From NCBI RefSeq assembly GCF_011927765.1, contig NZ_JAATJG010000005.1, positions 124,001-188,000 on the forward strand: 64,000 nucleotides of DNA, in the 5' to 3' direction. Each line of letters begins with the position of its first letter. Within the stretch, counting starts at the first letter, position 1. This DNA comes from Wenyingzhuangia aestuarii (GTDB taxonomy: Bacteria; Bacteroidota; Bacteroidia; Flavobacteriales; Flavobacteriaceae). The notes beneath the pieces were generated by a model. It was not told the DNA's origin. It did no database searches and worked only from the letters and a program-made list of their open reading frames with translations. The position numbers and the translations under genes are program-made. Positions 9,382 to 42,206 of this stretch are shown one piece after another.

Positions 9382-9426
9382 CAAAGGTAGTTAACCACAA
9401 CAAATGCACGTGTAACAATTGTTACA
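9382..9426 (-). promoter_or_regulatory. Promoter and Crp-type site of the YeeE/YedE operon
   Basis: A perfect 16-bp palindrome TGTAACAATTGTTACA (9411-9426) is followed on the minus strand by the -7 box TACCTTTG (9382-9389). Centre-to-centre distance is 33 bp, which places the site near -40, the class-II activator position. The two other promoters with this site (40373-40417, 42162-42206) have the identical 33-bp distance. Confidence 0.75.
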
Positions 9427-9444
9427 AGCAAAATTACATTCTTA

Positions 9445-10302
9445 ATGAACACTCTTATTACTAGTTTTACAAACAGCATTTCTTGGGTTTACCAAATGAT
9501 CACTTTTCAAACACTTTGGTATCAAAATTATTTCTGGGGATTAATCCTTATCTCTCTAATAATATGGAGCTTAGAAATTGTATTTCCTTGGAGAAAAGAA
9601 CAAAGCATTTTTAGAAAAGACTTTTGGTTAGATGGATTTTATATGTTTTTTAACTTCTTTCTATTCAGTATTTTTATCAGTGGATTTTACGCTCTTTTGG
9701 GACAATTTTTACAATCTATAGGACTTAACAAAAACTCTTTAACTCTTATTCATGTTAATGATTTATCGCCTATAACACAACTTTTTATCTTTTTTGTGTT
9801 GAGTGATTTTTTTCAATGGTTTACACACTTGTTACTACACAGGTTTCATTTTTTATGGAAGTTTCATCAAATACATCACAGTGTAAAAGAAATGGGTTTT
9901 GCAGCACATTTACGTTATCACTGGATGGAAAATATTTTATACAAACCCTTAAAAACATTAGCTATTATGCTAATTGGTGGTTTTGAACCTGAGCAAGCTT
10001 ACGTGGTTCATTTTATTGCTATTTGCATTGGCCATTTAAACCATGCCAACCTAAATATTACTTGGGGGCCTTTAAAATATGTATTTAACAATCCTGTTAT
10101 GCATTTGTATCATCACGCATATACATTGCCTAAAAACAAACAACTTGGGGTAAATTTTGGAATTAGTTTAAGCCTTTGGGATTATATATTTAGAACCAAT
10201 TACTTACCTAAACCTAATAAAGATTTAGAAATTGGTTTTCAGGGTGATGAAAAAATTCCAAATTCTTTTTGGAAACAACTTTGGGTAGGTTTTAAGAACT
10301 AA
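9445..10302 (+). CDS. Fatty-acid hydroxylase / sterol desaturase superfamily membrane enzyme
   Basis: A 285-aa protein with about four transmembrane segments and the di-iron histidine clusters of the superfamily: HLLLH (128-132), HQIHH (141-145), HLNHAN (197-202) and HLYHH (220-224). It should be an inner-membrane oxygenase acting on a lipid; the substrate is unknown (carotenoid, fatty acid or sterol-like are all possible). It is divergent from the YeeE/YedE operon, and the 16-bp Crp-type palindrome ends only 18 bp before its start codon, so it may be affected by the same regulator. Confidence 0.85.
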   Translation: MNTLITSFTNSISWVYQMITFQTLWYQNYFWGLILISLIIWSLEIVFPWRKEQSIFRKDFWLDGFYMFFNFFLFSIFISGFYALLGQFLQSIGLNKNSLTLIHVNDLSPITQLFIFFVLSDFFQWFTHLLLHRFHFLWKFHQIHHSVKEMGFAAHLRYHWMENILYKPLKTLAIMLIGGFEPEQAYVVHFIAICIGHLNHANLNITWGPLKYVFNNPVMHLYHHAYTLPKNKQLGVNFGISLSLWDYIFRTNYLPKPNKDLEIGFQGDEKIPNSFWKQLWVGFKN

Positions 10303-10312
10303 ATACAATGAG

Positions 10313-10320
10313 TATCTTTG
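10313..10320 (+). promoter_or_regulatory. Candidate -7 box for the RluA-type gene
   Basis: TATCTTTG matches TAnnTTTG and lies 19 bp before the start codon at 10340. No TTTG lies at the usual -33 distance, so support is partial. Confidence 0.4.
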
Positions 10321-10339
10321 TAGTTAAATTAACTTCTGG

Positions 10340-12022
10340 ATGTCTACACCCAACTATTTTCATTCTTTTAGCAGTACTATTTCTGATATAGCTTTACCTA
10401 CAAAGTTTACTTATCCGTTTTATTACGAAACCCATCCTTTGTGTGAATTAGCTGCTAAAGAAGTACAAGCCTATATTCAAAATCAAAAAGAATGGGTGCA
10501 TCCTTTTACAGAAGAAAATGAACTAAACGAAAAACCTATTGGTAAAATGTTTGGAGTTTTGGTGGTTAAAAATCAACAAGGCAATATTGGATTTATTAGT
10601 GCTTTTTCTGGAAAGTTAGCAGGAACCAACAATCATACTTATTTTGTACCTCCTGTTTTTGATATGTTAACACAGGATAGTTACTTTTTACAAGAAGAAA
10701 TTCTTTTAAACAACCTTAATGCTCAGGTAGAAGCTTTAGAAAACAATCCAGATTATCAACGTTATAAAATTAAACTAGCTCAAACACTTAAAACAGCTTC
10801 GGAAGAAATAGGTAATTTAAGAGCTTTTATGATTGAAGCTAAAAAACAAAGAAAGCAAGAACGTATACAAGGACAGCAAACTTTATCAGAACCTGAATAC
10901 CATTTACTATTAAAAGAGTTGGCTAAAAAAAGTGTAGAAGCCAAATCTAACTTAAGAAACCTAACACAATCTTTTGACCAACAAATAGAAGAATTACAGA
11001 AACAAGTAGCTGTTTTTAAAAATCAGATACAGCATTTAAAAGCAGAAAGAAAATCAAAATCTAATGCTTTACAAAACTATCTATTTCATCAATACCAGTT
11101 TTTAAATAAAGCTGGAGACAGAAAAGATTTATTGGCTATTTTTAAAAACACTCCTTTTGACATTCCTCCTGCAGGAGCCGGAGAATGTGCTGCTCCCAAG
11201 TTGTTGCAATATGCATTTGCCAATAAGTTAACTCCTATTTGTATGGCCGAATTTTGGTGGGGAGACAGCCCTAAATCTGAAATTAGAAAACATGGAAATT
11301 ACTACCCTGCTTGCCAAGGAAAATGCAAACCTATTTTAGGGCATATGTTAGAAGGAATGGAATTAGACGACAATCCTTTGTTAACAAATCCTGCCATAGG
11401 AAAAGAAATTACCACGGTTTTTGAAGATGATTATTTATTAGTGATTAACAAACCCGAAGAGTTTTTATCCGTCCCCGGAAAAACCATAGATGATTCTGTC
11501 TATTTACGAATGAAACAACAATTTCCTAATGCAACCGGACCTTTAATTGTACATAGATTAGACATGTCTACATCTGGATTGATGGTCATTGCCAAAACCA
11601 AAGAAATTCACGAACACATACAACGTCAATTCATCAAAAGACAAGTAAGTAAACGTTATGTAGCTTTGTTAGACGGAATTCCAGAAAAAGAAGAAGGGTT
11701 TATAGATTTACCTCTGCGTTTAGATATTGATGACCGACCTAGACAATTGGTTTGTTTTAAACATGGAAAATCTGCCAGAACTCAATGGGAAATTATAGAA
11801 CAAAAGAACGGAAAAACTAAAGTGTACTTTTACCCTGTTACAGGTAGAACGCATCAATTAAGAGTTCATGCATCCCATCAACTAGGGTTAAACACTCCTA
11901 TTGTAGGTGATGATTTATATGGTACCAAACAAAATAGACTCCACTTACATGCAGAGTCTATTGTATTTCAACATCCTATTACTAAGGAAGAAGTAAAGGT
12001 TCAAGTTGAGGCTGAGTTTTAA
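10340..12022 (+). CDS. RluA-family pseudouridine synthase with long N-terminal region
   Basis: A 560-aa protein whose C-terminal ~220 residues are an RluA-type pseudouridine synthase: catalytic D408 in HRLDMSTSG, then GRTHQLRVH. About 340 extra residues precede it, including a predicted coiled coil (about 120-255) and a cysteine cluster (C283, C301, C325, C329) that could bind a metal. The RNA target (23S rRNA or tRNA) cannot be inferred. Long RluA variants of this layout occur in Bacteroidota and gamma-proteobacteria. There is no operon partner. Confidence 0.87.
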   Translation: MSTPNYFHSFSSTISDIALPTKFTYPFYYETHPLCELAAKEVQAYIQNQKEWVHPFTEENELNEKPIGKMFGVLVVKNQQGNIGFISAFSGKLAGTNNHTYFVPPVFDMLTQDSYFLQEEILLNNLNAQVEALENNPDYQRYKIKLAQTLKTASEEIGNLRAFMIEAKKQRKQERIQGQQTLSEPEYHLLLKELAKKSVEAKSNLRNLTQSFDQQIEELQKQVAVFKNQIQHLKAERKSKSNALQNYLFHQYQFLNKAGDRKDLLAIFKNTPFDIPPAGAGECAAPKLLQYAFANKLTPICMAEFWWGDSPKSEIRKHGNYYPACQGKCKPILGHMLEGMELDDNPLLTNPAIGKEITTVFEDDYLLVINKPEEFLSVPGKTIDDSVYLRMKQQFPNATGPLIVHRLDMSTSGLMVIAKTKEIHEHIQRQFIKRQVSKRYVALLDGIPEKEEGFIDLPLRLDIDDRPRQLVCFKHGKSARTQWEIIEQKNGKTKVYFYPVTGRTHQLRVHASHQLGLNTPIVGDDLYGTKQNRLHLHAESIVFQHPITKEEVKVQVEAEF

Positions 12023-12402
12023 ATCTCAATATCACAGAATAAAATAGAAATATAATCCTTTTATATAAATACGATTGTATGTGTTTTAAAAACATATACC
12101 TTTAAACCTACTATAAATCTAAAGAACCTGATTCATTATGAATACTAGTTTAAAGGAGTAACAAAGACTATTAATTCGTTATTTAAAATTCTTTTTTTTT
12201 AGTTTAGATTTACTATAAAACAGTTTAGTTCTATTTAATTAATAGTTAAAACTTTACATAACTTTAAACTGAAGTTTTACCGAAAACGTTTCCTTTAACC
12301 GAAAACGTTACCGATTTATACTATTTATATACTAAACTAGTAATACTATATAAATTCAATAGTTTTAAATAAAATTAATCCACACTCTACAACTAAACTA
12401 GT
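12023..12402. other. Intergenic region upstream of PUL1, with a duplicated 12-mer
   Basis: A 380-bp AT-rich stretch with no credible gene. It contains ACCGAAAACGTT twice (12279-12290 and 12298-12309, period 19 bp), about 95-125 bp before the PUL1 regulator start. The core AAACGTT resembles LacI-family operator cores, but no LacI gene lies in the window. No clean TAnnTTTG box was found; TAGTTTTA near 12360 is one mismatch away. Confidence 0.5.
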
Positions 12403-14034
12403 ATGAAAAATTATAATTTATTTTATCTATTATTTTTTTTATGTTTTACTACAAGTGCGCAAGTATATTGGAAAAAAGATAGTCTTTTTATAAAAGGACA
12501 AAAGCTAAAATTAATCTCTCCAGATGAAGCAATGGTCTATTATTATAGATCTTTAAAACTATGTACAGAAAACAACGATACAATTGGTATTATTAGAAAC
12601 AATACAGAAATTTCTGACATTTATAAAAGTAATATGGATTATACCATGGCATATGATGGATACTGGAAAGCTCTTTTATTAGCCAAAAATTTTCCTAACA
12701 AAATTGCAACAGGTAGAGTATATAGAGAATTAGGAGGTTTACATGGACTCTATAAAAGAAACAAAGAAGCTATTAAATATTTAAAAAAATCTCTAGAGCT
12801 AAGTAAAAAGCTGTATTACGAAAAAAAAATTAACAACAACTACGTTGTTAGTGACTATGCTATTATCTCTAAGTTTTACAGCACTTCTGGTTTAATAGAA
12901 AAATCTAAAATATATTTAGACAGTGCTATATTTTTGTATAAAAAACACAATCCAAACAAAACTAACTATCATTTTGAAATTGAAAAAGCTTTTTTTTTAG
13001 GAGAAGAAGGCAAACTTAAAAAAGCTATTGAAAAAATTGAAACCTCCTATAAATTCACTAAAAAAAACAACCAATCTTACCTTCCAATATTAGGTTGGAT
13101 AGCAGGGAATATTTACGCTAAAACAAATAATATTAAAAAAGCTAAATTTTATTTTGAAGAGGGTATTAATGCTAGCAACAAACACAAATCACATAAAGAA
13201 CATAAACTAAAATGTTTAATAGCCCTTTCTAAATTACATTATGAAAGTAATCATATTCATAAAGCTTATGAATATCTAAAAAAGGCTAAAAAAATTGAAG
13301 ATAAAACCTTTAATATTACCTCTTTTAACAATCAAAAATTATTCAACTTAAACGATAAATATCGAGAAAAAATTGAAAAACAAGATCAGTTATTAAAAAA
13401 ACAAGAGCTAGACAAGCTAGTACAAAAAGAAAAAATATTAAACCTAAAACTGATCTACATAAGTATAATATCAATTCTATTAATAGTGTTTGCTTTTACA
13501 TATATAAGAAATCTTATGATAAGACATAAAAAAGAAAAAGAAAAAAATAAATTAATAAGGATTAATGAACTCCAAAAACAAAAAGACATTCTAGAATTAA
13601 AAAACAAAGAATTAACCTCATCAGCTCTTAGATTAATTGAAAAGGATCAATTTATTAATAAAATTAGTAACAAACTTTCTACTAGAAATGAAAGAGTAAA
13701 TGTTTCAGAAATAAAACGAATGATAAAGTCCGAAAAAAAGAACAATACAACAAACTGGTCAGAGTTTGAAACTAGGTTTACCAAAGTAAATAAAAAGTTT
13801 TATGTAGGACTAAATCAAAAACATCCAAACTTAAGCTTGTCAGAAAAAAAGTTATGTGCTTTCATTAAACTAAAACTAACTAGTAAAGAAATTGCATCTC
13901 TAATGGGAGTATCTAACGAAAGTGTTCACACCTTTAGATATAGACTTCGAAAAAAACTTAATCTAAAAAAAGAAGTTAGTTTAACAGAATACATTGATAA
14001 TATTAAAATCGGCAATAAAAACGACACAGAATAG
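12403..14034 (+). CDS. TPR-containing membrane regulator with C-terminal LuxR-type HTH (PUL1 regulator)
   Basis: A 543-aa protein with a signal peptide (ends near TTSAQ, 20), TPR-like helical repeats (about 40-310), a coiled coil, one transmembrane helix (about 349-370), a second coiled coil and a LuxR/GerE-like helix-turn-helix (about 475-540; it includes LTSKEIASLMGVSNESVH). The topology puts the TPRs outside the cytoplasm and the DNA-binding domain inside, as in one-protein PUL sensors of Flavobacteriia. It sits directly upstream of susC in the same direction. The C-terminal domain resembles that of the PUL2 regulator (35683-38472), but the sensor part is unrelated. Confidence 0.8.
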   Translation: MKNYNLFYLLFFLCFTTSAQVYWKKDSLFIKGQKLKLISPDEAMVYYYRSLKLCTENNDTIGIIRNNTEISDIYKSNMDYTMAYDGYWKALLLAKNFPNKIATGRVYRELGGLHGLYKRNKEAIKYLKKSLELSKKLYYEKKINNNYVVSDYAIISKFYSTSGLIEKSKIYLDSAIFLYKKHNPNKTNYHFEIEKAFFLGEEGKLKKAIEKIETSYKFTKKNNQSYLPILGWIAGNIYAKTNNIKKAKFYFEEGINASNKHKSHKEHKLKCLIALSKLHYESNHIHKAYEYLKKAKKIEDKTFNITSFNNQKLFNLNDKYREKIEKQDQLLKKQELDKLVQKEKILNLKLIYISIISILLIVFAFTYIRNLMIRHKKEKEKNKLIRINELQKQKDILELKNKELTSSALRLIEKDQFINKISNKLSTRNERVNVSEIKRMIKSEKKNNTTNWSEFETRFTKVNKKFYVGLNQKHPNLSLSEKKLCAFIKLKLTSKEIASLMGVSNESVHTFRYRLRKKLNLKKEVSLTEYIDNIKIGNKNDTE

Positions 14035-14255
14035 AGTATTTATCAAAAAAACACAAGATTAAATGTCATTTCGTAAAAAAACAACAAATAAACACATAAA
14101 CCACTCATTACCAACAGTAAAAAAACACCTTGTTCATTAAATTTTCAGATAGAAAACTCATTTAGTTCATCAATTATACAGAGGTATCTCATACATAAAG
14201 CGACTATCATTAATAATATTTGTTAAGTATAAACTTAAATTAACGCTAAATTATT

Positions 14256-17200
14256 ATGAGATTAAAACCACGTTCGAAAAGGAAAATAAGATTCCTTATC
14301 TCGAGTTTAATGCTACTTAGTACAACACTAAGTATGGCTCAAAAAAAAACAATAACAGGAATTGTTTCTGGTGATGGCATGACTTTACCAGGAGTTAATA
14401 TTGTTATAAAAGGGACAAATCTTGGTAGTACCACAGATTTTGATGGAAAGTTTAAAATTGCTGTAGAATCTGAAAAAATACTTCAATTTTCTTACTTAGG
14501 ATTTAAAACAAAAGAAATAAAAATTGGCAACAAAACAGATTTGCAAGTAACCTTGGTTTCTGATATTTCTTCTTTAGATGAAGTTGTTGTTGTAGGGTAT
14601 GGATCTCAGAAAAAAAAGGAAGTTACTGGTGCCGTTACCAAAATACAACAAGAAGACTTAAGTAAAACAGCTACACCCGATGTTGCATCTGCATTGCAAG
14701 GACAAGTAGCTGGAGTAAATGTTGTAGCTAGTTCTGGTGACCCAGGAGCTACGGCAAACATTACAATTAGAGGTTTAACCTCTGTCAATGGGTCTAACTC
14801 CCCCCTTTATGTTGTTGATGGGATTCCTTATGAGGACGACCCAAAATTAAGTATGGAAGAAATTGAGAGCTTTGACATTTTAAAAGATGATGCCTCAGCT
14901 GCCATATACGGAACTAGAGGAGCTGCCGGAGTAATATTAATTACAACCAAAAAAGGACAAAAGGGAACTATGAAAATGTCTCTTAATAGTTTTTATGGTA
15001 TTCAAAGTATTACATCTGGTGTTCCTTTGCTAAATTCACAAAACCTATACTATGTTCGGTTTTTAAGAGCTCAAGCTCAAAACAATACTACATATGGAAA
15101 CACTTGGACTAGCGCAGAACAAGGACCACACAGATTAAGCTTAAACTCTAACATTGTTGATGTTGTAGAAAACAATTACGCCCCAATACAAAGTCACAGT
15201 TTAAGAGTTTCTGGAGGTAAAAGTGGTCTTTTGTATAGTTTTACAGGTACTTACTTTAATCAAGAAGGAGTTGTAATTAAATCAGGATATGATAGAATCA
15301 ACTTAAGATCTAATGTAGAGTTTAAAAAAGGAAATTGGAAAGTCTCAACCATTACTGGTTTTAGACTCGAAGAAACACAACACTCACCATACGGTTTATT
15401 ATTAGATGCCAATAGCTACTTTGCATATCAACCACAATTAAATTTAGGTACAGATATATTTAACAATGCAGGAGATGCAGATAGTAGTGAAGCTGCAAAC
15501 CTAGGTAGAATAGGACGTAAATTTATTAGAGAAGATGATACCGAAGCCAGAACTTTTGACACCAATATTAAAATAAAATACAATTTTTCAAAAAAATTGA
15601 ACTATATGATGAGAGTAGGTGCTCTTTATGGAAATTCTAACAGAATAACTATAAACCCTGATTTTAAAGTATACAATTCTCTTGGAGAATTGGTTCCTAC
15701 AGAAAGATCTAGTATTAGAAACACTAGCATGAGTAGAAAAAAATTATCTTTTGAAAACATTCTTAACTACACTCAAAAAATTGGAAATCACGAATTAAAA
15801 CTTTTAGGGGTGTACTCTAGAGAATATTATGAATACAGTCAATTTTACGCTCAAAAGCACGATGTAGCCAACAATGACATTACCGTAATAAATGGAGCTA
15901 CCGCAGACCCAGTTGTTGCATCTGGAACCACTAGGTACGACATGGATAGAACCAACACTTTAGTAGGTATGTTAGGTAGATTGCAATACAACTATGCAGG
16001 TAAATATCTTTTAAGCGCAAGTTTAAGAAGAGATGGATCTTCTAGATTTGTAAAACAACCTTGGGGACTCTTCCCTTCAGTTTCTTTAGGATGGAACGTA
16101 TCTGATGAAAACTTTTGGACTCCTATTAAAGACGTTGTTGGAAATTTTAAACTTAGAGCAAGTAGAGGAACAACAGGAAATCAAGGAATACAAGACTACA
16201 GTTTTGATTCTGTTATTGTGTTAGAAAACGATTATTTATTTGGTGCAGGGGATAATCAAAATTTACAGCTTGGTGCCATTCAAACTACTTACGCAAACCC
16301 AAATGTAAAATGGGAAACCTCTGTATCTAATAACTTTGGTTTAGACATGTCTTTGTTTCGCAATAAATTTCAATTTACTGCAGACATTTATAAATCTAAC
16401 AAACGCGATATGCTACTACCAGTATTAACTCCTCCATCTTCTGGAGGAGGCTCTAATTCTCAGGTAGTTTTAAACGTAGGAGACATGGAAAATAGTGGTC
16501 TAGAACTAGCCTTAAATTACAAACAAAGATTTGGAAAACTTAACATAAGAACAGGACTTACCTACACAAAAAACAACAATAAAATAACTAAAATGGGTGG
16601 TGAAAACACAATGTTAGCATTACCTAACAGTAAAGTTTCTGATATAGGTGCAGGAGAAGATTTAGTTTCTTTTGTAGCTGAAGGTTACGAAGCTGGTTCT
16701 TTCTTTCTAATTAAAACAGACGGCCTTGTAACTACTGATGAAGAACTTTTAGAATATCAAAAAATAATGCCTACAGCAAAACTTGGTGACTTAAGATATA
16801 TAGATGCCATTACTGTTGACACTAATGGTGACGGAATAGCTGATGCAGGTGACGGAACCATTAATGAAGACGACAGACAATATTCAGGAAGTGGAATTCC
16901 TACTTTTGAAATGGGATGGAACTTTAATGCAGGCTACAAAAACTTTGATTTTTCTATGCAATGGTATGGATCTTTTGGAGCAGAAATATTAAACGGTAGT
17001 AAAGCATATACTTACAAAAAAGCAAACCACCAAGATTTAGTATATCAGTGGTCTCCACAAAACCCTACATCTACCATTCCTGTAAACAGAGGAGATAGTC
17101 ATGAAAACTACAGAGGTCAAACAGACTTTTGGTTAGAAGACGGAAGCTTTATTAGACTTAGAAATATTACTCTTGGCTATACCTTTCCTAAGAAATCTAT

Positions 17201-17381: not shown

Positions 17382-17400
17382 TCCACTAAACAAAACAATC

Positions 17401-19227: not shown

Positions 19228-19249
19228 TTAAAAATTAAAACCATTTAAA

Positions 19250-20875: not shown

Positions 20876-20894
20876 CAACACTAACCTTAACCAC

Positions 20895-20927
20895 AATAGA
20901 CCTCTTTATACCATAAAGAGGTCTATT
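20895..20927 (+). terminator. Hairpin between PUL1 lipoprotein and GH16-like gene
   Basis: A 15-bp perfect inverted repeat (20895-20909 / 20913-20927; arm AATAGACCTCTTTAT) with a 3-nt loop, followed by an AT-rich run. It is either a terminator with a separate promoter downstream or an attenuator inside the PUL. Confidence 0.65.
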
Positions 20928-20955
20928 AATATTTTTAACAGAAAAACAGAAAACT

Positions 20956-22284: not shown

Positions 22285-22370
22285 GACATATTTGAGTTAG
22301 TTTACTAATGTGTAAGAGCTTGTAAGTATATTTTACTAGGCACTAAGCCATAAAGTGTGTAAGTTTTAAA

Positions 22371-22398
22371 AACTCAGGATTGAATTCAATCCTGAGTT
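22371..22398 (+). terminator. Terminator hairpin just inside the left IS end
   Basis: A perfect 28-bp palindrome (22371-22384 / 22385-22398) followed by seven T residues. Its outer arm is part of the IS inverted repeat. It should stop transcription entering from the upstream GH16-like gene before it reaches the transposase. Confidence 0.8.
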
Positions 22399-22431
22399 TT
22401 TTTATTTATTAATTTTAAATTTTACACATTT

Positions 22432-23622: not shown

Positions 23623-23683
23623 ATAATTTAACCCTGAGTTTTAGTTACACACTTTATTAGGATAGTGTCTTCTTAAAATTTAT

Positions 23684-24571: not shown

Positions 24572-24594
24572 ATTTAAATTAATTTATTATAGTC

Positions 24595-24602
24595 CAAAAC
24601 TA
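24595..24602 (-). promoter_or_regulatory. Candidate -7 box for the PUL2 esterase
   Basis: On the minus strand this reads TAGTTTTG, matching TAnnTTTG, 23 bp before the start codon. No TTTG lies at the usual -33 distance. Confidence 0.4.
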
Positions 24603-27059: not shown

Positions 27060-27107
27060 GCTTCTATTGTTTTAACATAAAACTCTGCTCATCAACTTAG
27101 AAAACCT

Positions 27108-27965: not shown

Positions 27966-27975
27966 AATTCTTTTT

Positions 27976-30527: not shown

Positions 30528-30566
30528 AATATTTGATTTTTAAGTTTATTGTTTAATCTGTTTATC

Positions 30567-32138: not shown

Positions 32139-32147
32139 GGTCGTTGG

Positions 32148-35100: not shown

Positions 35101-35324
35101 AAATAACTGAACGTAATAATTTGTCCTGAAGAAACTTTTGTAAGAATATATTCTCCATCAAAGTTTGAATAAGAACCATTAGCAGTTCCTTTAATAAGAA
35201 CACTAACCCCTGGTAAAGGCTCTCCAGTTTTTACACTTGTTACAACTCCGGATATATTCTTGCTTTGAGCGAACCCAAATACAGATATGAATAAGAGAAG
35301 CGTGAATATTGTGATTTTTCTCAT
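32148..35324 (-). CDS. SusC-like TonB-dependent outer-membrane transporter (PUL2)
   Basis: A 1058-aa SusC/RagA receptor: a signal peptide ending near VFGFAQ (20), a carboxypeptidase-regulatory-like domain (about 23-100), a plug starting at SEVVVIGYGTQKKKEVTGAV, and a 22-strand-type barrel ending in LGLNLTF. It resembles the PUL1 SusC in overall layout but the barrel loops differ. It is the first gene of the PUL2 structural operon, and a TATGTTTG box lies 28 bp upstream. Confidence 0.94.
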   Translation of the reverse strand: MRKITIFTLLLFISVFGFAQSKNISGVVTSVKTGEPLPGVSVLIKGTANGSYSNFDGEYILTKVSSGQIITFSYLGYNSEEITIGNENIINVELKEDIESLSEVVVIGYGTQKKKEVTGAVSVVNSEVIEALNPTRVEQALQGQVAGVNITSTSGAPGSGMNIRIRGVSTNGDSRPLILVDGNPITDLSVINPNDIKSVNVLKDATAGIYGVRAANGVILIETKTGSKKSDLKFNVTANYSLQQTSNRLDLLDAQGLAEYINEATGTSRYFIQPTTGLVYDSSVSAVDPLANTDWQNEVFELAPSYDVNLTANGGTEKLAYSFGTSFLSQDGIVGGDKSNYNRFTARTNLQYDVTDKLKLSATAIYSRSQKNKLQEGGIGAVLYNAINADPFTLAKDPAPLTDVGFEELRNGYGIVQTGAIEVSNPLSQMASTYDTDVVNKISPTFSADYSFSDKLSIRSKFLMNHATVNIETFRPEVFMGVGKSLTREFNNEYVDYVDTYDDYTWNNLITYTDTFNDIHNLTVLLGHEMVEFRGLYDGQTGVSLKNGANTFAEASIANSETVNPRYQPSAIESGSNQFKNRLQSIFTRVQYNYKEKYLLSAVFRRDASSKFSEDNNVGFFPSLSLGWNISDESFLKDNNTISSLKLRASYGVIGNDRIDGDFPYVGLLDGEGAYSSNDEVTEADLLVGVAEGKLGNPSLKWETTTTGNIGFDLAVLNNRLTFTADVFKKVTDDLLISAESSALTGVAGIGSSAPFINAGTVENSGLEFLVSYRDQFSKDFKFNASFNFSTLKNEVTYVGNLAGFEQGGAFGIGTGIVPSRMEAGHALGYFYGYKTNGIYQNQAEIDALNVNATANNNEYHTDAGVGDLRFVDTNGDGYISEDDKTDIGDPIADLTAGLNLGFTYKNIDFSASAIGSFGNEMVRDYERLNLLANKSTRVLDRWTPTNPSNTVPRATNGASINTDLFSDYFVEDASYIRIQNVQVGYNFDNKILNKMGVDNLRLFLSANNLYTFTDYSGYDPSASGSGTDGKGDPIGAGIDRGFYPVATTFILGLNLTF

Positions 35325-35682
35325 GTCTAGTAATATTAATTTGATATATCACAAACATAAGCCCCATCTATTGATAATTCATCAAACAAACCCCCTACAA
35401 AAAACATACAATGTAATTTATTTACCCACTAGTAGGGTTTATATAGGATTCACGCTTAAAAAAAACTGCTGATTTTTAACTTTGTAGTGGTGTTGTATAG
35501 GTAAAACACCTGTTTGTAGTGACAACAACAAGACAAAAACCCCGTATTAAAAGGATTTATAGAGCCAAAAACTCTAAAAAGAAATAGCTTTGTATTGTTT
35601 GTTACATTCTACTTAACAAAGAACCACCACGTTTTGAAGCTTCAAAACGTAGTGATTTTTTAATTTATTACTTAAAACACCC
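35325..35682. other. Non-coding region between PUL2 susC and its regulator
   Basis: A 358-bp gap carrying the susC promoter on the minus strand. A 22-bp perfect palindrome (35629-35650, core GAAGCTTC) lies 33 bp after the regulator stop codon and can act as its terminator, although the T run is on the plus-strand side. No small gene is convincing here. Confidence 0.55.
35352..35386 (-). promoter_or_regulatory. Candidate promoter of the PUL2 susC operon
   Basis: The -7 box TATGTTTG (minus strand, 35352-35359) matches TAnnTTTG. A TTTG occurs at 35383-35386 with a 23-bp spacer, longer than the 19 bp seen at xylB and rpsF. The start codon lies 27 bp downstream of the box. Confidence 0.5.
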
Positions 35683-38472
35683 TTATATATTTAAAATATA
35701 ATCTGTTAAATTTTGTTCATTAGACAAATTCATTTTTTTCCTTAATCTATACCTCTTTACCTCAATACTCTTTGGGGAAATATTTAATAAAGGAGCAATT
35801 TCTTTAGATGATAGATTTAATCTTAAATAAGCACACAATCTTAAATCGTTAGATGTTAATGCAGGATGCATTGTTTTTGTTTTCTTGATAAAATCTTTAT
35901 CGGCATTATTAAAAGCTTCCTCAAACAACTTCCAATCATCAACATTATTTAAACTCTTATCTATAATATTTACTACGTTGTTAATGTTTTTCTGTTCTCC
36001 TTTTAACAATTCATCTTTTATAGTATTTAACAATTCGTTCTTTTTAATAATATTCATGGTAGAACTGGCCAATTCCTTACTTTTTAAATCAACATCTTCT
36101 TCTAGTTTTTGATTTTCTAAAAGTGTTAATCTTTTTTCATTTTCTAATTTGTGAAGTTCTATTTCTCTTTGTTTTCTTGCCAATAATCTTTTTTTCTGTT
36201 TGTTATAACTTCTTTTATACATAATGTGCATAAAAGCAGAAAATAACACAATTATAACAACGTATAGAAAAAGCATAGGAGTAGCTATATACCACGGTTG
36301 TTTAATTTTAAATCTATAAGTTTCTACATTACTTGTTAATACTCCATCTACTCTTGCTCTAATGGAAAGCTTATAGTTACCAAAAGGAATATTTTTTAAT
36401 AGAATATTACTATCATCAGACCAAGGACTCCAAAAATTACTTAAACCTTCTAACTTGTATTGATATTTTACTTGTGTATAATTATTAAAAACGGGAACAC
36501 TACAAGCAAACTCAAAATTATTGTCTTTGTTTTCAAATTTTAGTTCCTCATTTAAATTTACATTAACAGATTGATGGTTAAACGATGAGTTCTTAATTTG
36601 ATTAATTTGAACTCTATATTGTTTTTTCTTATCTAGTTTATTGGTGTTTAGAATAATATATCCGTTTGAATTCCCTAGTAAATAGGTGTTATCAGACAAA
36701 AAACTAATGTTTTCAAAACCAGTAGCTCCTTTTCTTAATTTTAAAGGGATAGAAATCCTTGTAATAATAGGTTTAGTGCTTAACCCACCTTGTTCTATGC
36801 AAATAATTTCTTTTTTAGAAAAGCCCCACAATTTATCATTAGGAATGGTGTTTACCAAAACTCCAGAAATATAGCTTCTGTTAGACCACAAACTTGATAA
36901 AACACTATCTTTTACAAAAACATCTTTATTAGTATTGTACTTATACACTCCTTTTTTATATGAGTACAAAATATGATTTTTGTATTTTAACAAGTCTGAG
37001 TGTAATCCTTTAGAAATATGACTAATAATAGAGATATTGGAAACCTGAGTTAATGCTTTATCTACAGTTAATTTATATACCCCCTTGTATTCGTGGTTTA
37101 CAAAAATGGTATGATCATTTAAAAATTCAAAAGATCTACTTGAAATATTAAATCCCTTAATTTTATTTTTTAATATCCATTGATTATTTATTTTATGGAA
37201 TACATATAATCCTGAATAATTACCTTGTATAAATGTATTGGCAGATAATGACTCTATTTTCCAAGTTCCATTAATATCACTTATTAAGTTAGCTTTAGTA
37301 CCTTCTACAACATAAGTTCCTGAATTATGACCACAAAAAAGTTCATTTCCAATTATTTTTAATTCCCAAACTTGCCCTCCAGTATTGGCTAGCATTTTAA
37401 AATCATCATTAGAATTATATGGTTTACTAAACAATCCTTGATTGGTTCCTAAATAAATTCTATCCTTATAAACTACCGATGTGTATACTGTTCCTATAAT
37501 TCCGTTTAAGTCTTTGTATACTTTAAAAGGAGTATTAATATCAATTACATTAATACCATCATCTAAACCTAGCCAAATATTATTCTCACTATCTTCAAAC
37601 AAACTTAATACGGTATTATTCCCTAAACCTTTTTTCTGGTTCATACTAAATGTAATCCCCTCTTTTTGATTGACAACAATTACTCCGTTTGAAATAGTTC
37701 CTAAAACTAAATTCCCGTTTCTTAACTTGTAACTACTATAAATAGTATAGGGTTTAATTTGCTTATTAACATTTCCTCCCCATTGTTTTAACTGTTTGTT
37801 TTTTAAAATGTAAATTCCATTATGATCTGTAATACAAACCAAGTTATTCTCTACTTTATGTAATCCAACAATAATGTTTTTTAGAATTATTTTATCGTTA
37901 GAAACCAATACAGGTTTTCCTTTTTCTAGTTTAAAAACACCTTTGTTTAATTCTTGATAATACAGTACACCATCTACCAAGTACATATGTAATATTTCCG
38001 TGGCAGATTCAATTAACTTGTACGTTCCTGTTTGTAAGTTATACAAGTATATTCTTTGCAATGATTGAAAAAGAACCCATCCTTCTACTTCTTCTATTTT
38101 CCAAAATTGCTCATCTTCTAACAATTCAATTTCATCAGATAAAGAAGTATAAATTAGTCTTCCTTTTAAATCTCTTTCCCAATATCCAAAACCATTGTAA
38201 AAACCACCATAAATCTTATCTCCAATAACATTAACAGATCTTAAAATAGTTTCGTTAGGAGTAGGGTACAACCTCCATGCAGCTCCATCAAACTCTAAAA
38301 GACCTTTATTATTTGCTACATAAACATGTTTATTTTTTCCTTGCGCAAAAGACCAATTCTGATTTTCTGCATTGTAATCTTTGGCAGTATAAATACTAAT
38401 AGGTGGTAATTCTTGTGAAAAAACAGTAGTTATAAAAAGTAAAAAAAAATAAATGGGGCTAAAAACGCGCAT
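35683..38472 (-). CDS. Propeller/Y_Y_Y membrane sensor with LuxR-type HTH (PUL2 regulator)
   Basis: A 929-aa one-protein sensor. I use the ATG at 38472, which places the signal peptide (ends near TVFSQ) at the true N-terminus; an ATG 27 bp upstream is possible. Order of domains: a periplasmic beta-propeller of Reg_prop-type repeats (about 20-640), a Y_Y_Y domain (about 650-722), one transmembrane helix (about 727-750), a coiled coil, and a LuxR-like HTH (about 863-929; it includes LSSKEIAPLLNISPKSIE). There is no histidine kinase or receiver domain, so it is not a hybrid two-component system. It lies upstream of, and in line with, PUL2 susC. Confidence 0.85.
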   Translation of the reverse strand: MRVFSPIYFFLLFITTVFSQELPPISIYTAKDYNAENQNWSFAQGKNKHVYVANNKGLLEFDGAAWRLYPTPNETILRSVNVIGDKIYGGFYNGFGYWERDLKGRLIYTSLSDEIELLEDEQFWKIEEVEGWVLFQSLQRIYLYNLQTGTYKLIESATEILHMYLVDGVLYYQELNKGVFKLEKGKPVLVSNDKIILKNIIVGLHKVENNLVCITDHNGIYILKNKQLKQWGGNVNKQIKPYTIYSSYKLRNGNLVLGTISNGVIVVNQKEGITFSMNQKKGLGNNTVLSLFEDSENNIWLGLDDGINVIDINTPFKVYKDLNGIIGTVYTSVVYKDRIYLGTNQGLFSKPYNSNDDFKMLANTGGQVWELKIIGNELFCGHNSGTYVVEGTKANLISDINGTWKIESLSANTFIQGNYSGLYVFHKINNQWILKNKIKGFNISSRSFEFLNDHTIFVNHEYKGVYKLTVDKALTQVSNISIISHISKGLHSDLLKYKNHILYSYKKGVYKYNTNKDVFVKDSVLSSLWSNRSYISGVLVNTIPNDKLWGFSKKEIICIEQGGLSTKPIITRISIPLKLRKGATGFENISFLSDNTYLLGNSNGYIILNTNKLDKKKQYRVQINQIKNSSFNHQSVNVNLNEELKFENKDNNFEFACSVPVFNNYTQVKYQYKLEGLSNFWSPWSDDSNILLKNIPFGNYKLSIRARVDGVLTSNVETYRFKIKQPWYIATPMLFLYVVIIVLFSAFMHIMYKRSYNKQKKRLLARKQREIELHKLENEKRLTLLENQKLEEDVDLKSKELASSTMNIIKKNELLNTIKDELLKGEQKNINNVVNIIDKSLNNVDDWKLFEEAFNNADKDFIKKTKTMHPALTSNDLRLCAYLRLNLSSKEIAPLLNISPKSIEVKRYRLRKKMNLSNEQNLTDYILNI

Positions 38473-38507
38473 ATTTTTGGTTGTTTTATGTAAAAACAAG
38501 TTAAAAA

Positions 38508-38536
38508 AAAAAGAGCAACATACCGTAGCTCTTTTT
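38508..38536 (-). terminator. Terminator of the persulfide dioxygenase-rhodanese operon
   Basis: A 9-bp inverted repeat (38508-38516 / 38528-38536, arm AAAAAGAGC) with an 11-nt loop and a long minus-strand T run. It lies 25 bp after the rhodanese stop codon. Confidence 0.75.
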
Positions 38537-38560
38537 CTTTTTAATAATTATTTGGAACGT

Positions 38561-38941
38561 CTATTTATTCCACTCCAAATAACCTCCTTTTAAATCGTAA
38601 ATATGTGTATATCCGTTTTTGATCATTTGATTTAAAGCTTTTAAACTTCTTTTACCAGAACGACAATAAATATACGTTGGCCTATTTTTATCTAAAGTCT
38701 CTATTTGTTGTTTAAAATTACTTTGCGATAAGACATCCATATTTATAGCTTTTGGAATATGACCTGATTTGTATTCATTAGCTGTTCTAACATCTATTAA
38801 CTGAATTTTACCTTCTGAAATAGCTTGTTTAAATTCAGCCACAGACAATCTATAGTTCTTAAGTTTTTGAGCCGTTACTTTTTGCATAACTACCCAACCA
38901 ACTAAAACAACTGTAATTGCTACATATACTATTGTTTTCAT
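38561..38941 (-). CDS. Membrane-anchored single-domain rhodanese
   Basis: A 126-aa sulfurtransferase with one N-terminal transmembrane helix (about 4-20) and a rhodanese domain (about 32-125). The catalytic cysteine is C93 in the loop CRSGKRS, preceded by the LIDVRTANEY motif (48-57). It should transfer sulfane sulfur between thiosulfate or persulfide and an acceptor, probably on the periplasmic face. It starts 3 bp after the dioxygenase gene, so the two are co-expressed. Confidence 0.9.
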   Translation of the reverse strand: MKTIVYVAITVVLVGWVVMQKVTAQKLKNYRLSVAEFKQAISEGKIQLIDVRTANEYKSGHIPKAINMDVLSQSNFKQQIETLDKNRPTYIYCRSGKRSLKALNQMIKNGYTHIYDLKGGYLEWNK

Positions 38942-38944
38942 AGT

Positions 38945-40351
38945 TTATAACGTTGACGGACAAACATAGTCCGTTGTTTTTAACTTAGATTCTTTAATTT
39001 TAGCAAATCCTCCTATAACATCTACAAAATTATGAATCCCTCTACTTTTAAGAATAGAAGCTGCAATTACACTTCTATACCCTCCTCCACAGTGGATGTA
39101 AAAATTACTTGTTGATGGAAATTTATCTAAATGATTATTTAAATCATCCAAAGGAGTATTTTTGGCTATAACCATTCTTTCAGATAAAAACTCACTATTT
39201 TTTCTTACATCAAAAACAGGTGTAGCTTCTGTAATAATAGTTTCTAAAGCATCTGCTGTAATTTGTCTAACCACATCGTATTCTCTACCCGATTTTACCC
39301 AAGCATCAAAACCTCCTTTTAAATATCCTAAAGTATTATCAAAACCTACACGAGACAAACGTGTAATAGTTTCCTCTTCTCTACCTTCTGGAATTACCAA
39401 AACAATAGGTTGTTTAACATCACCAATTAATGCTCCTACCCAAGGTGCAAAACTACCATCAATACCAATAAATATAGATTGAGGAATATGTCCTTTGGCA
39501 AAATCGTCTTGAGATCTAACATCTAATACCAAGGCACCTGCTTCATTTGCTAAATGCTCTAATTCATCTGCACTTAACTCATGCGTTCCATGTGCAATAA
39601 CCTCAGCAATATCTTCATACCCCTCTTTATTCATTTTAACGTTTAAAGGAAAATATTGAGGTGGTGGCAACAAACCATCAGTTACTTCTTTTACAAATTC
39701 AGCTTTGGTCATATCTGCTCTTAAAGCATAATTATTCTCTTTTTGATCTCCTAAAGTTCCTTTGGTTTCTTTACTTAAATTTTTACCACAAGCAGAACCT
39801 GCTCCATGGCCAGGATAAATAATTAAATCGTTAGAAAGAGGCATTATTTTAGTTCGTAAACTATCGTATAAAATAGCGGCTAAATCATCTTGAGTCATAT
39901 CCGCAGCTTTTTGAGCCAAATCGGGTCTACCAACATCTCCTAAGAACAAAGTATCTCCCGTAAACAAAGCATAATCAGCCCCATTTTCATCTCTTAATAA
40001 ATATGTGGTAGATTCCATTGTATGCCCTGGTGTGTGTATAGCCACAATGGTAATTTTACCTAATTTAAATTTTTGATTATCTTTTGCAATAATGGCATCA
40101 AAAGTAGGATTGGCATTAGGTCCATATACAATAGGTGCTCCTGTTTTTTTAGACAAGGTAACATGACCACTCACAAAATCTGCATGAAAATGTGTTTCTA
40201 AAATATATTTTATAGTAGCCTTATTTTTAGATGCCATTTCTATATAAGGTTGCACCTCTCTTAATGGATCTATAATAGCTACCTCTCCTTCACTTTCTAT
40301 ATAATAAGCTCCTTGAGCCAAACATCCTGTATAAATTTGTTCTATTTTCAT
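38945..40351 (-). CDS. Persulfide-dioxygenase-like metallo-beta-lactamase fused to two rhodanese domains
   Basis: A 468-aa cytoplasmic protein. The start at 40351 is preferred over upstream ATGs (e.g. 40480), which would run back across the sulP stop codon. The ETHE1/Blh-type domain (1-230) has THFHADF (H54, H56, D58), H110, D133 and H182 as iron ligands. Rhodanese domain 1 (about 265-357) has no cysteine at its active loop (VIPEGREEET), so it is probably inactive. Domain 2 (about 365-468) keeps C421 in HCGGGYRS. Expected reaction: oxidation of glutathione-type persulfide to sulfite. The promoter carries a Crp-type site. Confidence 0.88.
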   Translation of the reverse strand: MKIEQIYTGCLAQGAYYIESEGEVAIIDPLREVQPYIEMASKNKATIKYILETHFHADFVSGHVTLSKKTGAPIVYGPNANPTFDAIIAKDNQKFKLGKITIVAIHTPGHTMESTTYLLRDENGADYALFTGDTLFLGDVGRPDLAQKAADMTQDDLAAILYDSLRTKIMPLSNDLIIYPGHGAGSACGKNLSKETKGTLGDQKENNYALRADMTKAEFVKEVTDGLLPPPQYFPLNVKMNKEGYEDIAEVIAHGTHELSADELEHLANEAGALVLDVRSQDDFAKGHIPQSIFIGIDGSFAPWVGALIGDVKQPIVLVIPEGREEETITRLSRVGFDNTLGYLKGGFDAWVKSGREYDVVRQITADALETIITEATPVFDVRKNSEFLSERMVIAKNTPLDDLNNHLDKFPSTSNFYIHCGGGYRSVIAASILKSRGIHNFVDVIGGFAKIKESKLKTTDYVCPSTL

Positions 40352-40372
40352 TTCTTTATTTTTTATTCTATT

Positions 40373-40417
40373 CAAAATTAAAGCTATTTTAACTTCTCTA
40401 CAGTAACAATGGTTACA
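40373..40417 (-). promoter_or_regulatory. Promoter and Crp-type site of the dioxygenase-rhodanese operon
   Basis: On the minus strand: TGTAACCATTGTTACT (40402-40417) followed by the -7 box TAATTTTG (40373-40380). Centres are 33 bp apart, and the site centre is 58 bp from the start codon. It overlaps the sulP stop codon. Confidence 0.75.
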
Positions 40418-42140
40418 CTCTACGAACCGTTTGCTGACAAATTTTATTCTGTAAATCGTCTTTACAAATAATGCCATCAAAACAATCTACAGCCTCATAA
40501 GTTCTTACAAACAAGTTTTCTTTTCCTAACTCTTTTATCATTCCATTATTAAACAATACATCTCTTGTAGGACCAATGGCACCCGTAATAAAAAACTTTA
40601 TCTGTTGTTCTTTTAGACTTTGTATGTATTTAATTAACATGGCATTTGCACTACTATCTATATAACTAATAGATTCTGCATTTAAAATAACAGCTTTTAA
40701 AGTTTCCTTTTTTTGAGTAACCAATCCTTCTAGTGTTTTCTTAAAAAAATCTTTATTTCCAAAAAATAACTGGGCATCAAAACGAATAATTAACAAATCG
40801 TCTCTGTGTTTTACTTGCTCATGAAATCTCTCTACATTTTTAAAATAATTGCTTCCTTCTATTCTTGCCAACACTGCAATATGAGGTTGTGATGTTCTGT
40901 AAATCATCAACACCAAAGAAGCCATAATTCCTACCAATATTCCCTGAGTAATTCCTATAAATAAAGTGATGATGAATGTAGTAATTAACAAGAAAAATTC
41001 ATCTCTATTTTGATTCCATAATTGAACAGGCAATTTAAAATCGATTAAATTATATACGGCCACCATAATCATAGATGCCAATACTGCACTAGGTAAATAA
41101 TAAAACAACGGCGTTAAAAACAATAAGGTTAAGCCAATAACAATGGTACTTACTATACTTGAAATTCCTGTATGTGCACCTGCTTGATTGTTTACAGCTG
41201 TTCTAGAAAATCCTCCTGTGGTTGGATAAGATTGAAAAAAAGATCCTACAATGTTAGATGTTCCCAAAGCCACCAATTCTTGATTGGCATCTACTTTATA
41301 ATTATCTTCATTTTCTTCTAAAGATTTAGATACAGAAATAGCCTCCATATAAGCCACCAAAGCTAAGGTTAACGCCAAAGGTGTTAATTTAGACAAAGGA
41401 ATATTATTAAAATCTGGAACTTTTAAAGAAGGCAATCCTTTAGGGATATCTCCTACAATTTTTACTCCCAAATCCTGTAAATTAAATAGATAAACTACTA
41501 GTGTTCCTAAAAGCACCACTACCAAAGCCGATGGAATTTTGGGTACATATTTCTTTAAAAGCACAATAGTTACAATTCCTAAAAAGCTAATTAACAAGGT
41601 AACTAAATGTGTTTCTGTAATGTGTGTAAAAACTTGTTCTATTAAGAAGTGTAACTTAGAGTTTCCTTGAATGGAGATTCCTAAAAAGTGTTTTAACTGA
41701 CTTAATCCTATAACAATAGCAGCTGCAGATGTAAATCCACTAATAACGGGTTTTGATAAAAAATTAACCAAAAACCCCAATCGTAGAATTCCCAATAACA
41801 ATTGAAAAAGCCCCATAAATAAAGACAAGAATATTGCCATGGCAATATAATTATCTAAGCCCGTAATGCTTAAAGCTCCTAAACTGGCTGCTACCAATAG
41901 AGAGTCCATAGCTACAGGTCCTACAGACAATTGTCTGGAAGTTCCCATAACAGCATACACTACTTGTGGCATTAATGCAGCATATAGTCCAAAAACTGGA
42001 GGTAAACCTGCTATCATGGCATAAGCCATACCTTGCGGAATTAATAAAATTCCAACGGTAATACCTGCCATAACATCTCCATACAGAAATGCTTTTTTAT
42101 AGGTGGGTATCCAGCTTAAAATGGGAAAGTATTGTTTCAT
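40413..42140 (-). CDS. SulP-family anion transporter with STAS domain
   Basis: A 575-aa inner-membrane transporter of the SLC26/SulP family. It opens with a cytoplasmic segment, then GDVMAGITVGILLIPQGMAYA, has about 10-14 transmembrane segments and the SulP signature region near RQLSVGPVA, and ends in a STAS domain (about 445-560) containing DSSANAML. Probable cargo is sulfate or sulfite; bicarbonate and other anions are alternatives. I start at 42140, not 42164, because the position of the promoter and of MKQYFPIL fits family members. It probably exports sulfite or sulfate formed by the dioxygenase pathway. Confidence 0.9.
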   Translation of the reverse strand: MKQYFPILSWIPTYKKAFLYGDVMAGITVGILLIPQGMAYAMIAGLPPVFGLYAALMPQVVYAVMGTSRQLSVGPVAMDSLLVAASLGALSITGLDNYIAMAIFLSLFMGLFQLLLGILRLGFLVNFLSKPVISGFTSAAAIVIGLSQLKHFLGISIQGNSKLHFLIEQVFTHITETHLVTLLISFLGIVTIVLLKKYVPKIPSALVVVLLGTLVVYLFNLQDLGVKIVGDIPKGLPSLKVPDFNNIPLSKLTPLALTLALVAYMEAISVSKSLEENEDNYKVDANQELVALGTSNIVGSFFQSYPTTGGFSRTAVNNQAGAHTGISSIVSTIVIGLTLLFLTPLFYYLPSAVLASMIMVAVYNLIDFKLPVQLWNQNRDEFFLLITTFIITLFIGITQGILVGIMASLVLMIYRTSQPHIAVLARIEGSNYFKNVERFHEQVKHRDDLLIIRFDAQLFFGNKDFFKKTLEGLVTQKKETLKAVILNAESISYIDSSANAMLIKYIQSLKEQQIKFFITGAIGPTRDVLFNNGMIKELGKENLFVRTYEAVDCFDGIICKDDLQNKICQQTVRRV

Positions 42141-42161
42141 AAAATTAAATAAGTAGAAGCA

Positions 42162-42206
42162 CAAAGCTAAGTGTAAGATAGCCCTTATACAGTAACAAAA
42201 GTTACA
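42162..42206 (-). promoter_or_regulatory. Promoter and Crp-type site of sulP
   Basis: On the minus strand: TGTAACTTTTGTTACT (42191-42206) followed by the -7 box TAGCTTTG (42162-42169). Centres are 33 bp apart and the site centre is 58 bp from the start codon, identical to the dioxygenase promoter. Confidence 0.75.

What the first reader, a model, noticed from the sequence alone, without database searches (positions are those of the whole stretch)
9382..42206. A three-promoter Crp-type sulfur regulon with identical architecture
GTAAC-N4-GTTAC occurs in front of three separate units: the split YeeE/YedE transporter (9411-9426), the persulfide dioxygenase-rhodanese operon (40402-40417) and sulP (42191-42206). 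In each, the site centre is exactly 33 bp upstream of the centre of an exact TAnnTTTG box (TACCTTTG, TAATTTTG, TAGCTTTG), equal to about -40, the class-II position of Crp-family activators. Two of the three also share the same 58-bp distance to the start codon. The units are up to 33 kb apart but functionally coherent (sulfur import, persulfide oxidation, anion export). The Crp/Fnr-type gene at 43571-44197 is the natural candidate regulator. I do not know of a described GTAAC-N4-GTTAC regulon in Flavobacteriia.
Basis: partly seen in the sequence, partly recalled or inferred. Interest (0 to 1): 0.85.

Follow-up and report, generated by a model that had tools for sequence, protein, structure and literature searches.

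The report
Flavobacterial Crp-type reactive-sulfur regulon
Many flavobacteria appear to use one CRP-like switch protein, placed at a fixed spot in front of a set of genes, to turn on the handling and removal of reactive sulfur; the DNA pattern is real and widely conserved, but binding and the signal are untested.

Summary
Confirmed. The three GTAAC-N4-GTTAC sites are real (0.06 expected) and each lies exactly 22 nt before a TAnnTTTG box, which places them at -41.5. In the whole genome only these three exact sites have that layout; one-mismatch copies precede trxA and a CoA-disulfide-reductase-like gene. Of 202 palindromes around 80 named crp orthologs, 106 have a strict box at gap 21-23, 101 of them at gap 22, mostly before TauE/SafE, persulfide-dioxygenase-like and SulP genes. 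Across 395 genomes of the phylum the layout tracks the window's Crp (31 of 70 with it, 5 of 325 without). That Crp alone among the genome's 20 cNMP-domain proteins has Val at the CRP Glu181 position; Cys77, Cys83 and Cys84 are invariant in 26 aligned sequences. The operator is not new: it was predicted for HcpR2 (PMC1274295) and contains the NtcA core GTAN8TAC, but hcp is absent here. Best reading: a class-II CRP/FNR activator of a reactive-sulfur regulon. The operator-regulator link is strong inference; the signal (persulfide on cysteines) is a guess. Nothing was tested at the bench.

The parts
9382..9425 (-). promoter 1: operator TGTAACaattGTTACA (9411-9426), 22-nt gap, box TACCTTTG (9382-9389); predicted start of transcription about 9377
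   Evidence: start inferred from the sigma-A box at -12 to -5 in F. psychrophilum (PMC9723704)
8805..9353 (-). YeeE/YedE-type sulfur transporter half 1 (182 aa), weakly TsuA-like
   Evidence: Pfam Sulf_transp; NCBIfam TsuA 40 bits against a cut-off of 400
8381..8794 (-). YeeE/YedE-type sulfur transporter half 2 (137 aa)
   Evidence: Pfam DUF6691 and Sulf_transp
40373..40416 (-). promoter 2: operator TGTAACcattGTTACT, 22-nt gap, box TAATTTTG (40373-40380); operator overlaps the sulP stop codon; predicted start about 40368
   Evidence: start inferred as above
38945..40351 (-). persulfide-dioxygenase-like MBL-fold protein with rhodanese domains (468 aa, ATG at 40351); the name rests on the domains
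   Evidence: Pfam Lactamase_B and Rhodanese (2 stretches); NCBIfam sulfur transferase/dioxygenase 65 bits against a cut-off of 625
38561..38941 (-). single-domain rhodanese (126 aa)
   Evidence: Pfam Rhodanese
42162..42205 (-). promoter 3: operator TGTAACttttGTTACT, 22-nt gap, box TAGCTTTG (42162-42169); predicted start about 42157
   Evidence: start inferred as above
40413..42140 (-). SulP anion transporter (575 aa, ATG at 42140)
   Evidence: Pfam Sulfate_transp and STAS, NCBIfam sulP over cut-off
43571..44197 (-). CRP/FNR-type regulator (208 aa): Cys77, Cys83, Cys84; recognition helix TSRVVISR (Val at the CRP Glu181 position)

Best explanation
The window carries the core of a reactive-sulfur regulon run by the CRP/FNR-family protein at 43571-44197. 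Its dimer binds TGTAAC-N4-GTTACW (the CRP operator TGTGA-N6-TCACA with G7 changed to A) through a recognition helix with Val where CRP has Glu181. The operator sits at -41.5 from the start set by the flavobacterial sigma-A box TAnnTTTG, so the protein most likely activates as a class-II activator. Targets in this genome: the split YeeE sulfur importer, persulfide-dioxygenase-like protein plus rhodanese, SulP, and probably trxA and, less surely, a CoA-disulfide-reductase-like gene elsewhere on the chromosome. Inferred only: the protein is switched by sulfane sulfur (persulfide or polysulfide) reacting with its cysteines, which lie in the stretch aligned with the effector-binding part of NtcA; the products oxidise, reduce or move the sulfur and so lower the signal.
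For: Sites and spacing beyond chance. Family scan, 397 genomes, free gap of 8-38: in the 30 loci fetched gap 22 occurs 29 times, no other gap more than twice. 80 named loci around crp orthologs: 404 strand counts of the palindrome (202 palindromes) against 0-14 for seven rearranged controls; gap 22 to a strict box 101 times, 24 times for all other gaps from 0 to 60 together. 186 of 202 palindromes have the box with at most 1 mismatch at gap 21-23, and 62 of 80 loci have a palindrome within about 160 nt 3' of crp. Co-occurrence: mean 2.12 matches in 109 genomes with a strong Crp, 0.20 in 20 without, 0.18 in 11 with only a weak homolog; reversed control 0.44, 0.15, 0.27 (G001-G140 of 397). Phylum: 31 of 70 with the Crp against 5 of 325 without. 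Two congeners keep the yeeE, pdo, sulP and trxA sites. Val183 invariant in 26 aligned sequences and kept in 27 of 28 further homologs; the one with Glu (L279, genome G430) has no exact spaced site in its genome. Class-II position from PMC9723704. Many targets are sulfur or thiol genes.
Against: No binding, expression or start-site data. 39 of 70 phylum-set genomes with a homolog at E<=1e-50 have no exact spaced site; many hold a homolog of about 48% identity that may be another subfamily. Homolog L278 lacks Cys83 and L280 lacks both Cys83 and Cys84, yet their genomes keep spaced sites before tolC, which weakens a simple cysteine-pair sensor. The commonest target in the gap-22 sample is a TolC-type efflux operon (25 of 89), not obviously sulfur and not found in this genome. 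The Cys region of the model is poorly predicted (pLDDT 54-57). The one-mismatch site of the CoA-disulfide-reductase-like gene was not found in congeners. An hcp promoter elsewhere has the same layout, so the DNA pattern alone does not name the regulator. Genomes are related, so the p-value overstates the weight.
Confidence: 0.75

Rival explanations
1. Same regulator and promoters, but the signal is not sulfane sulfur: a thiophilic metal such as copper, sulfite, general thiol oxidation or a small ligand.
For: The TolC-HlyD-RND operon is the commonest target in the gap-22 sample (25 of 89); peroxiredoxin, OsmC and DoxX genes also occur; Cys83 or both Cys83 and Cys84 are missing in two homologs.
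Against: Targets in this genome are sulfur importer, persulfide-dioxygenase-like protein, rhodanese, SulP, thioredoxin and a CoA-disulfide-reductase-like protein; the one RND piece scanned scores best with multidrug models, then CusA/CzcA, all far below cut-off.
Confidence: 0.3
2. The sites belong to an HcpR2-type nitrosative-stress regulator, as predicted for this motif in Bacteroides, clostridia and others.
For: Identical operator (PMC1274295); genome G620, with no window-type Crp at E<=1e-50, has the same 44-bp layout before hcp.
Against: hcp (PF03063) found in 0 of 12 genomes that have the layout, this one included, while the control search finds it in 5 of 14 known genomes, E. coli and a Bacteroides among them; targets here are sulfur genes; the helix has Val, not the Pro reported for HcpR2.
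Confidence: 0.03
3. Another Crp paralog of this genome binds the sites, for instance the SRPSLN-helix protein (L042).
For: Pro at the 181 position, as in HcpR2.
Against: Not found at E<=1e-30 in either congener, both of which have the sites; found in 8 of 31 genomes lacking a strong window-type Crp, and those 8 have 0-1 matches. Sites cluster beside the window-type Crp.
Confidence: 0.03
4. Repressor rather than activator: the protein sits at the same place but blocks transcription until the signal removes it.
For: Sulfane-sulfur regulators of other families include repressors (titles and abstract starts in the listings).
Against: The fixed gap (22 in 101 cases against 24 for all other gaps together), giving -41.5, is what class-II activation needs; repression would tolerate other positions (recalled principle).
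Confidence: 0.1

Closest known systems
HcpR2 (CRP/FNR family; Rodionov et al. 2005, PMC1274295, one section and passages read)
   Same: Predicted operator GTAACnnnnGTTAC; CRP/FNR family; changed residue at position 181; the same 44-bp layout is seen before hcp in genome G620.
   Different: HcpR2 is predicted to regulate hcp and has Pro at 181; here hcp is absent, the residue is Val, and the targets are sulfur genes.
NtcA of cyanobacteria (PMC3898017, passages read)
   Same: Operator core GTAN8TAC, centre about -41.5, class-II promoter with a TAN3T box; helix aligned as TRVTVTR against SRVVISR.
   Different: NtcA responds to 2-oxoglutarate and controls nitrogen; the window protein scores 42 against its cut-off of 245; NtcA has no cysteines at the aligned places.
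Reactive-sulfur regulators of other families: BigR, SqrR, SoxR/sHdrR, OxyR, MarR types (listings); FisR and CstR recalled
   Same: Control sulfide and persulfide genes such as sulfur dioxygenase, rhodanese or sulfur transport; sensing by cysteines (partly recalled).
   Different: Other protein families (recalled: ArsR, LysR, MarR, sigma-54 activator, CsoR); none of those listed is CRP/FNR.
E. coli CRP
   Same: Same fold family and class-II position (position recalled); operator differs at one base per half (TGTGA to TGTAA).
   Different: Glu181 replaced by Val; score 55 against a cut-off of 266.
3dv8, Crp/Fnr-family protein of Eubacterium rectale (solved structure, function not stated)
   Same: Best sequence relative in the PDB; Cys residues aligned with Cys77 and Cys83.
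   Different: No regulon known to me; helix reads SHREVITR (Glu, not Val).

Membership tests
CRP/FNR superfamily | cNMP-binding-type domain plus Crp-type HTH | tested here: met
   Pfam PF00027 38.4 bits over 27.5; PF13545 27 bits at a cut-off of 27; the 50 Foldseek matches shown are CRP/FNR-family structures
CRP/FNR superfamily | binds DNA as a dimer at a palindrome | not testable with these tools
   operator is palindromic; binding not measured
class-II CRP-dependent promoter | operator centred at -41.5 from the start of transcription | tested here: inconclusive
   gap 22 to TAnnTTTG and box at -12 to -5 in F. psychrophilum give -41.5; start not mapped in this organism
HcpR2 | operator GTAACnnnnGTTAC | tested here: met
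HcpR2 | co-occurs with and regulates hcp | tested here: not met
   PF03063 in 0 of 12 genomes, this one included
HcpR2 | Pro at CRP position 181 | tested here: not met
   Val183, invariant in 26 of 26 aligned sequences
NtcA | GTAN8TAC at about -41.5 with a TA-box | tested here: met
   GTAAC-N4-GTTAC contains GTA-N8-TAC; position inferred
NtcA | NCBIfam NtcA model above cut-off | tested here: not met
   42.1 against 244.95 bits
E. coli-type CRP | NCBIfam CRP equivalog above cut-off; Glu181 | tested here: not met
   55.1 against 266 bits; Val at that position
FNR (4Fe-4S) | four cluster cysteines (recalled) | tested here: not met
   the window protein has only three, Cys77, Cys83 and Cys84
sulfane-sulfur sensor | cysteine persulfidation switches DNA binding | not testable with these tools
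   three invariant Cys in 26 sequences; in 28 further homologs Cys77 in 28, Cys83 and Cys84 together in 26

The most novel reading that the evidence does not exclude
A CRP/FNR subfamily, common in the family of the window's organism and present in other families of its class, has turned the effector-binding part into a Cys-x5-Cys-Cys site and become a persulfide-activated class-II activator: a sulfane-sulfur sensor in a protein family for which my searches listed none, controlling import, oxidation, reduction and export of sulfur and, in many species, an RND efflux pump.
Probability: 0.45. Interest if true: 0.75.

Novelty: new variant of a known kind. Interest (0 to 1): 0.62.

Why it matters
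Flavobacteria are abundant in the sea (recalled), yet five searches of an open-access library listed no CRP/FNR-type sulfur regulator for them. A defined operator with fixed spacing lets the regulon be read from genomes of this phylum, groups unexplained genes (TolC-RND operon, DoxX operon, DUF983, a fatty-acid hydroxylase) with sulfur handling, and offers a testable case of a cNMP-type pocket turned into a thiol sensor. It also suggests that two regulators (this one and a probable HcpR2) use one promoter layout.

Tried and rejected
Chance: rejected, though with up to 3 mismatches the spaced pattern equals its control in this genome (81 against 76). HcpR/nitrosative regulon: rejected by the absence of hcp in 12 of 12 genomes; one genome without the window-type Crp does have an hcp promoter with the same layout. 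Paralog L042 as binder: rejected. The OmpA-like candidate L014 (one mismatch) is probably chance: its right half-site is incomplete and no such site came up in four near genomes. The CoA-disulfide-reductase-like site (L015) also did not come up in those four, so it is less sure than trxA. Structure prediction did not resolve the Cys region. In the 16 kb read around the G620 hcp promoter no protein resembling the window Crp was found. Paper PMC10100741 (passages) gave nothing of use.

Dropped or partial counts: one search uses G001-G140 of 397 genomes, counts typed by hand; its weak class (best E between 1e-20 and 1e-58) was drawn after seeing the data; of the 57 genomes without a match, one search listed only 20, which are those used. 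One search uses the 30 loci plus 60 stretches chosen from the 44-nt matches listed there (the listing was cut), so its 89 sites are conditioned on gap 22. The 80 loci were kept from 587 for being the best crp relatives, which favours crp's neighbours among the targets. Alignment A1 holds the window protein and 25 of the 29 other loci L091-L119; L105, L107, L109 and L113 were left out (they show the same cysteines and helix). Of 19 unassigned sites, 3 have no open frame, 6 were checked with Pfam (one of them by its next gene), the rest named by likeness.
Full report
What was checked. The window has exactly three GTAAC-N4-GTTAC palindromes, at 9412-9425, 40403-40416 and 42192-42205, against 0.06 expected. 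Read on the minus strand, each is followed 22 nt later by TAnnTTTG. With the box, and allowing two mismatches, the window gives four matches against 0.09 expected, one of them site 2 read on the other strand. The whole genome (3.53 Mb, 43 contigs) has nine such palindromes against two for the reversed control; only these three have the box at gap 22 on the reading strand. Allowing one mismatch adds three places: in front of a gene most like CoA-disulfide reductase (L015; below the model's cut-off, and the locus ends inside the gene), a thioredoxin (L013; over cut-off) and an OmpA-like protein (L014, named from its sequence). With up to three mismatches the pattern equals its control (81 against 76), so only the close matches mean anything. 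By near relatives the organism is a Wenyingzhuangia (inference, since the window's own record may be left out there).

Position. In Flavobacterium psychrophilum the sigma-A box TAnnTTTG lies at -12 to -5 (PMC9723704, passages). A 33-bp distance between centres therefore puts the operator centre at -41.5, the class-II position. Predicted starts are 9377, 40368 and 42157, with leaders of 24, 17 and 17 nt. These are inferred, not mapped.

Conservation of the layout. In 397 genomes of the family, searched with a free gap of 8 to 38, 297 have a match (the reversed control also matches in some genomes, see below). In the 30 loci fetched from that search gap 22 occurs 29 times and no other gap more than twice. 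Around 80 named crp orthologs (1.55 Mb) there are 202 palindromes, counted on both strands as 404, against 0 to 14 for seven rearranged control palindromes. Gap 22 to a strict box occurs 101 times, gap 23 four times, and each other gap from 0 to 60 at most twice; 71 of 80 loci have at least one site at gap 21-23. With one mismatch allowed in the box, 186 of 202 palindromes have it at gap 21-23 on one strand or the other (at most other gaps single-mismatch boxes number 1 to 11 of 404, against 78 at gap 22). The 101 distinct promoters show a longer consensus, TGTAAC-N4-GTTACTG: T before the left half in 92%, T and G after the right half in 78% and 72%.

Which regulator. The window's Crp at 43571-44197 has a homolog at E<=1e-20 in 340 of 397 family genomes. 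In 62 of 80 named loci a palindrome lies within about 160 nt 3' of crp. Among genomes G001-G140 of the family set, those with a strong Crp have 2.12 matches on average (109 genomes, 95 with at least one), those without have 0.20 (20 genomes) and those with only a weak homolog 0.18 (11); the reversed control gives 0.44, 0.15 and 0.27. Over 395 genomes of the phylum the exact 44-bp layout occurs in 31 of 70 with the Crp at E<=1e-50 and in 5 of 325 without (Fisher p about 1e-21; genomes are related, so this overstates the weight); the reversed control is 0 in every row listed. One of the five exceptions is an hcp promoter. The other side: 39 of the 70 have the Crp and no exact spaced site; many of these hold a homolog of about 48% identity. 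The genome has 20 matches to the cNMP-binding domain, 19 over cut-off; reading all 20, only the window protein has SR-V-V in the recognition helix. Paralog L042, with Pro there, was not found in the two congeners, which have the sites, and occurs in 8 of 31 genomes that lack a strong window-type Crp and have 0-1 matches.

How the protein would read the site. CRP contacts bases with Arg180, Glu181 and Arg185 (PMC12531629, passage). The matching residues here are Arg182, Val183 and Arg187, invariant in 26 aligned sequences, the window's included. In 28 further homologs SRVV is kept in 27; the exception (L279) has Glu, and its genome G430 has no exact spaced site. NtcA also has Val there (TRVTVTR) and binds GTAN8TAC at about -41.5 before a TAN3T box (PMC3898017, passages). 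HcpR2, with Pro, was predicted to read GTAACnnnnGTTAC (PMC1274295). That CRP Glu181 variants change the preference at base 7 is recalled, not checked.

What it controls. Within the crp neighbourhoods, 106 spaced sites precede genes like TauE/SafE (45), the persulfide-dioxygenase-like protein (32), SulP (6), a cytochrome c (5), TolC (3), rhodanese (3), crp (2), peroxiredoxin (1), fatty-acid hydroxylase (1), no open frame (1) and 7 unassigned, one of which looks like a sulfide quinone reductase. In 89 gap-22 sites taken from the family scan and not by nearness to crp: TolC 25, persulfide-dioxygenase-like 12, TauE 9, SulP 9, rhodanese 4, fatty-acid hydroxylase 3, cytochrome 3, peroxiredoxin 2, one each of TlpA, thioredoxin and YeeE, and 19 unassigned. 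Family searches on six of the 19 point to sulfide-quinone-reductase-like proteins (two, both below cut-off), DoxX, Thioredoxin_9, OsmC and DUF983. Outside the organism's family, sites in the same class precede TauE-, dioxygenase-, SulP- and cytochrome-like genes (L293, L294, L295, L290). Congeners G228 and G383 have sites before yeeE, pdo, sulP and, with one mismatch, trxA; G180 has them before yeeE, sulP and, with one mismatch in the box, pdo; G060 before yeeE and pdo, among others, and no sulP site was found. The TolC gene was not found in this genome or in G383 at E<=1e-30; G228 has it, with a site.

The signal. This is the weak step. Cys77, Cys83 and Cys84 are the only cysteines of the protein and invariant in the 26 sequences; in 28 further homologs Cys77 is kept in 28 and Cys83 with Cys84 in 26. 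In the alignment with NtcA they fall in what I recall as its effector-binding stretch. With the gene content this suggests sulfane sulfur. Against it: L278 lacks Cys83 and L280 lacks both Cys83 and Cys84, although their genomes keep the layout before tolC, and the model is uncertain there (pLDDT 54-57).

Novelty. The library is open-access only, so this is not proof of absence. The operator sequence and promoter geometry are known kinds; the regulator subfamily and its regulon look undescribed.

Noticed in passing
L336:6295-8003 (genome G620): hcp (hydroxylamine reductase) with the identical 44-bp promoter layout in a genome with no window-type Crp at E<=1e-50; probably an HcpR2 promoter, so two regulators may share one layout.
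   Followed up: partly
L066, L207, L225 and others: A TolC-type gene, in L207 followed by HlyD-like and RND genes, is the commonest target in the gap-22 sample (25 of 89); it was not found in the window's genome.
   Followed up: partly
window 9445-10302: A fatty-acid hydroxylase gene (weakly OlsE-like) diverges from yeeE across the same palindrome; in other genomes such a gene has its own spaced site (L060, L214, L257). No TAnnTTTG at gap 22 on that side here.
   Followed up: partly
L009 around 1501 (contig C30 of the own genome): A GTAACGAAAGTTAC palindrome lies just in front of the 16S rRNA gene; it may belong to the rRNA leader rather than be an operator.
   Followed up: no
L278, L280 (genomes G181, G119): Homologs with the same recognition helix that lack Cys83 (L278) or both Cys83 and Cys84 (L280), in genomes that keep the layout before tolC.
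   Followed up: partly
window 40403-40416: The pdo operator overlaps the stop codon of sulP.
   Followed up: no
L080, L205, L233, L236, L253, L256: A small protein of unknown function followed by a DoxX-type membrane protein is a recurring target; only L080's DoxX was checked with Pfam, the rest by likeness.
   Followed up: partly
L065, L206: Next to the cytochrome-type target lies a TPMT-like methyltransferase (Pfam on a 50-residue start), possibly a thiol or sulfide methyltransferase.
   Followed up: no
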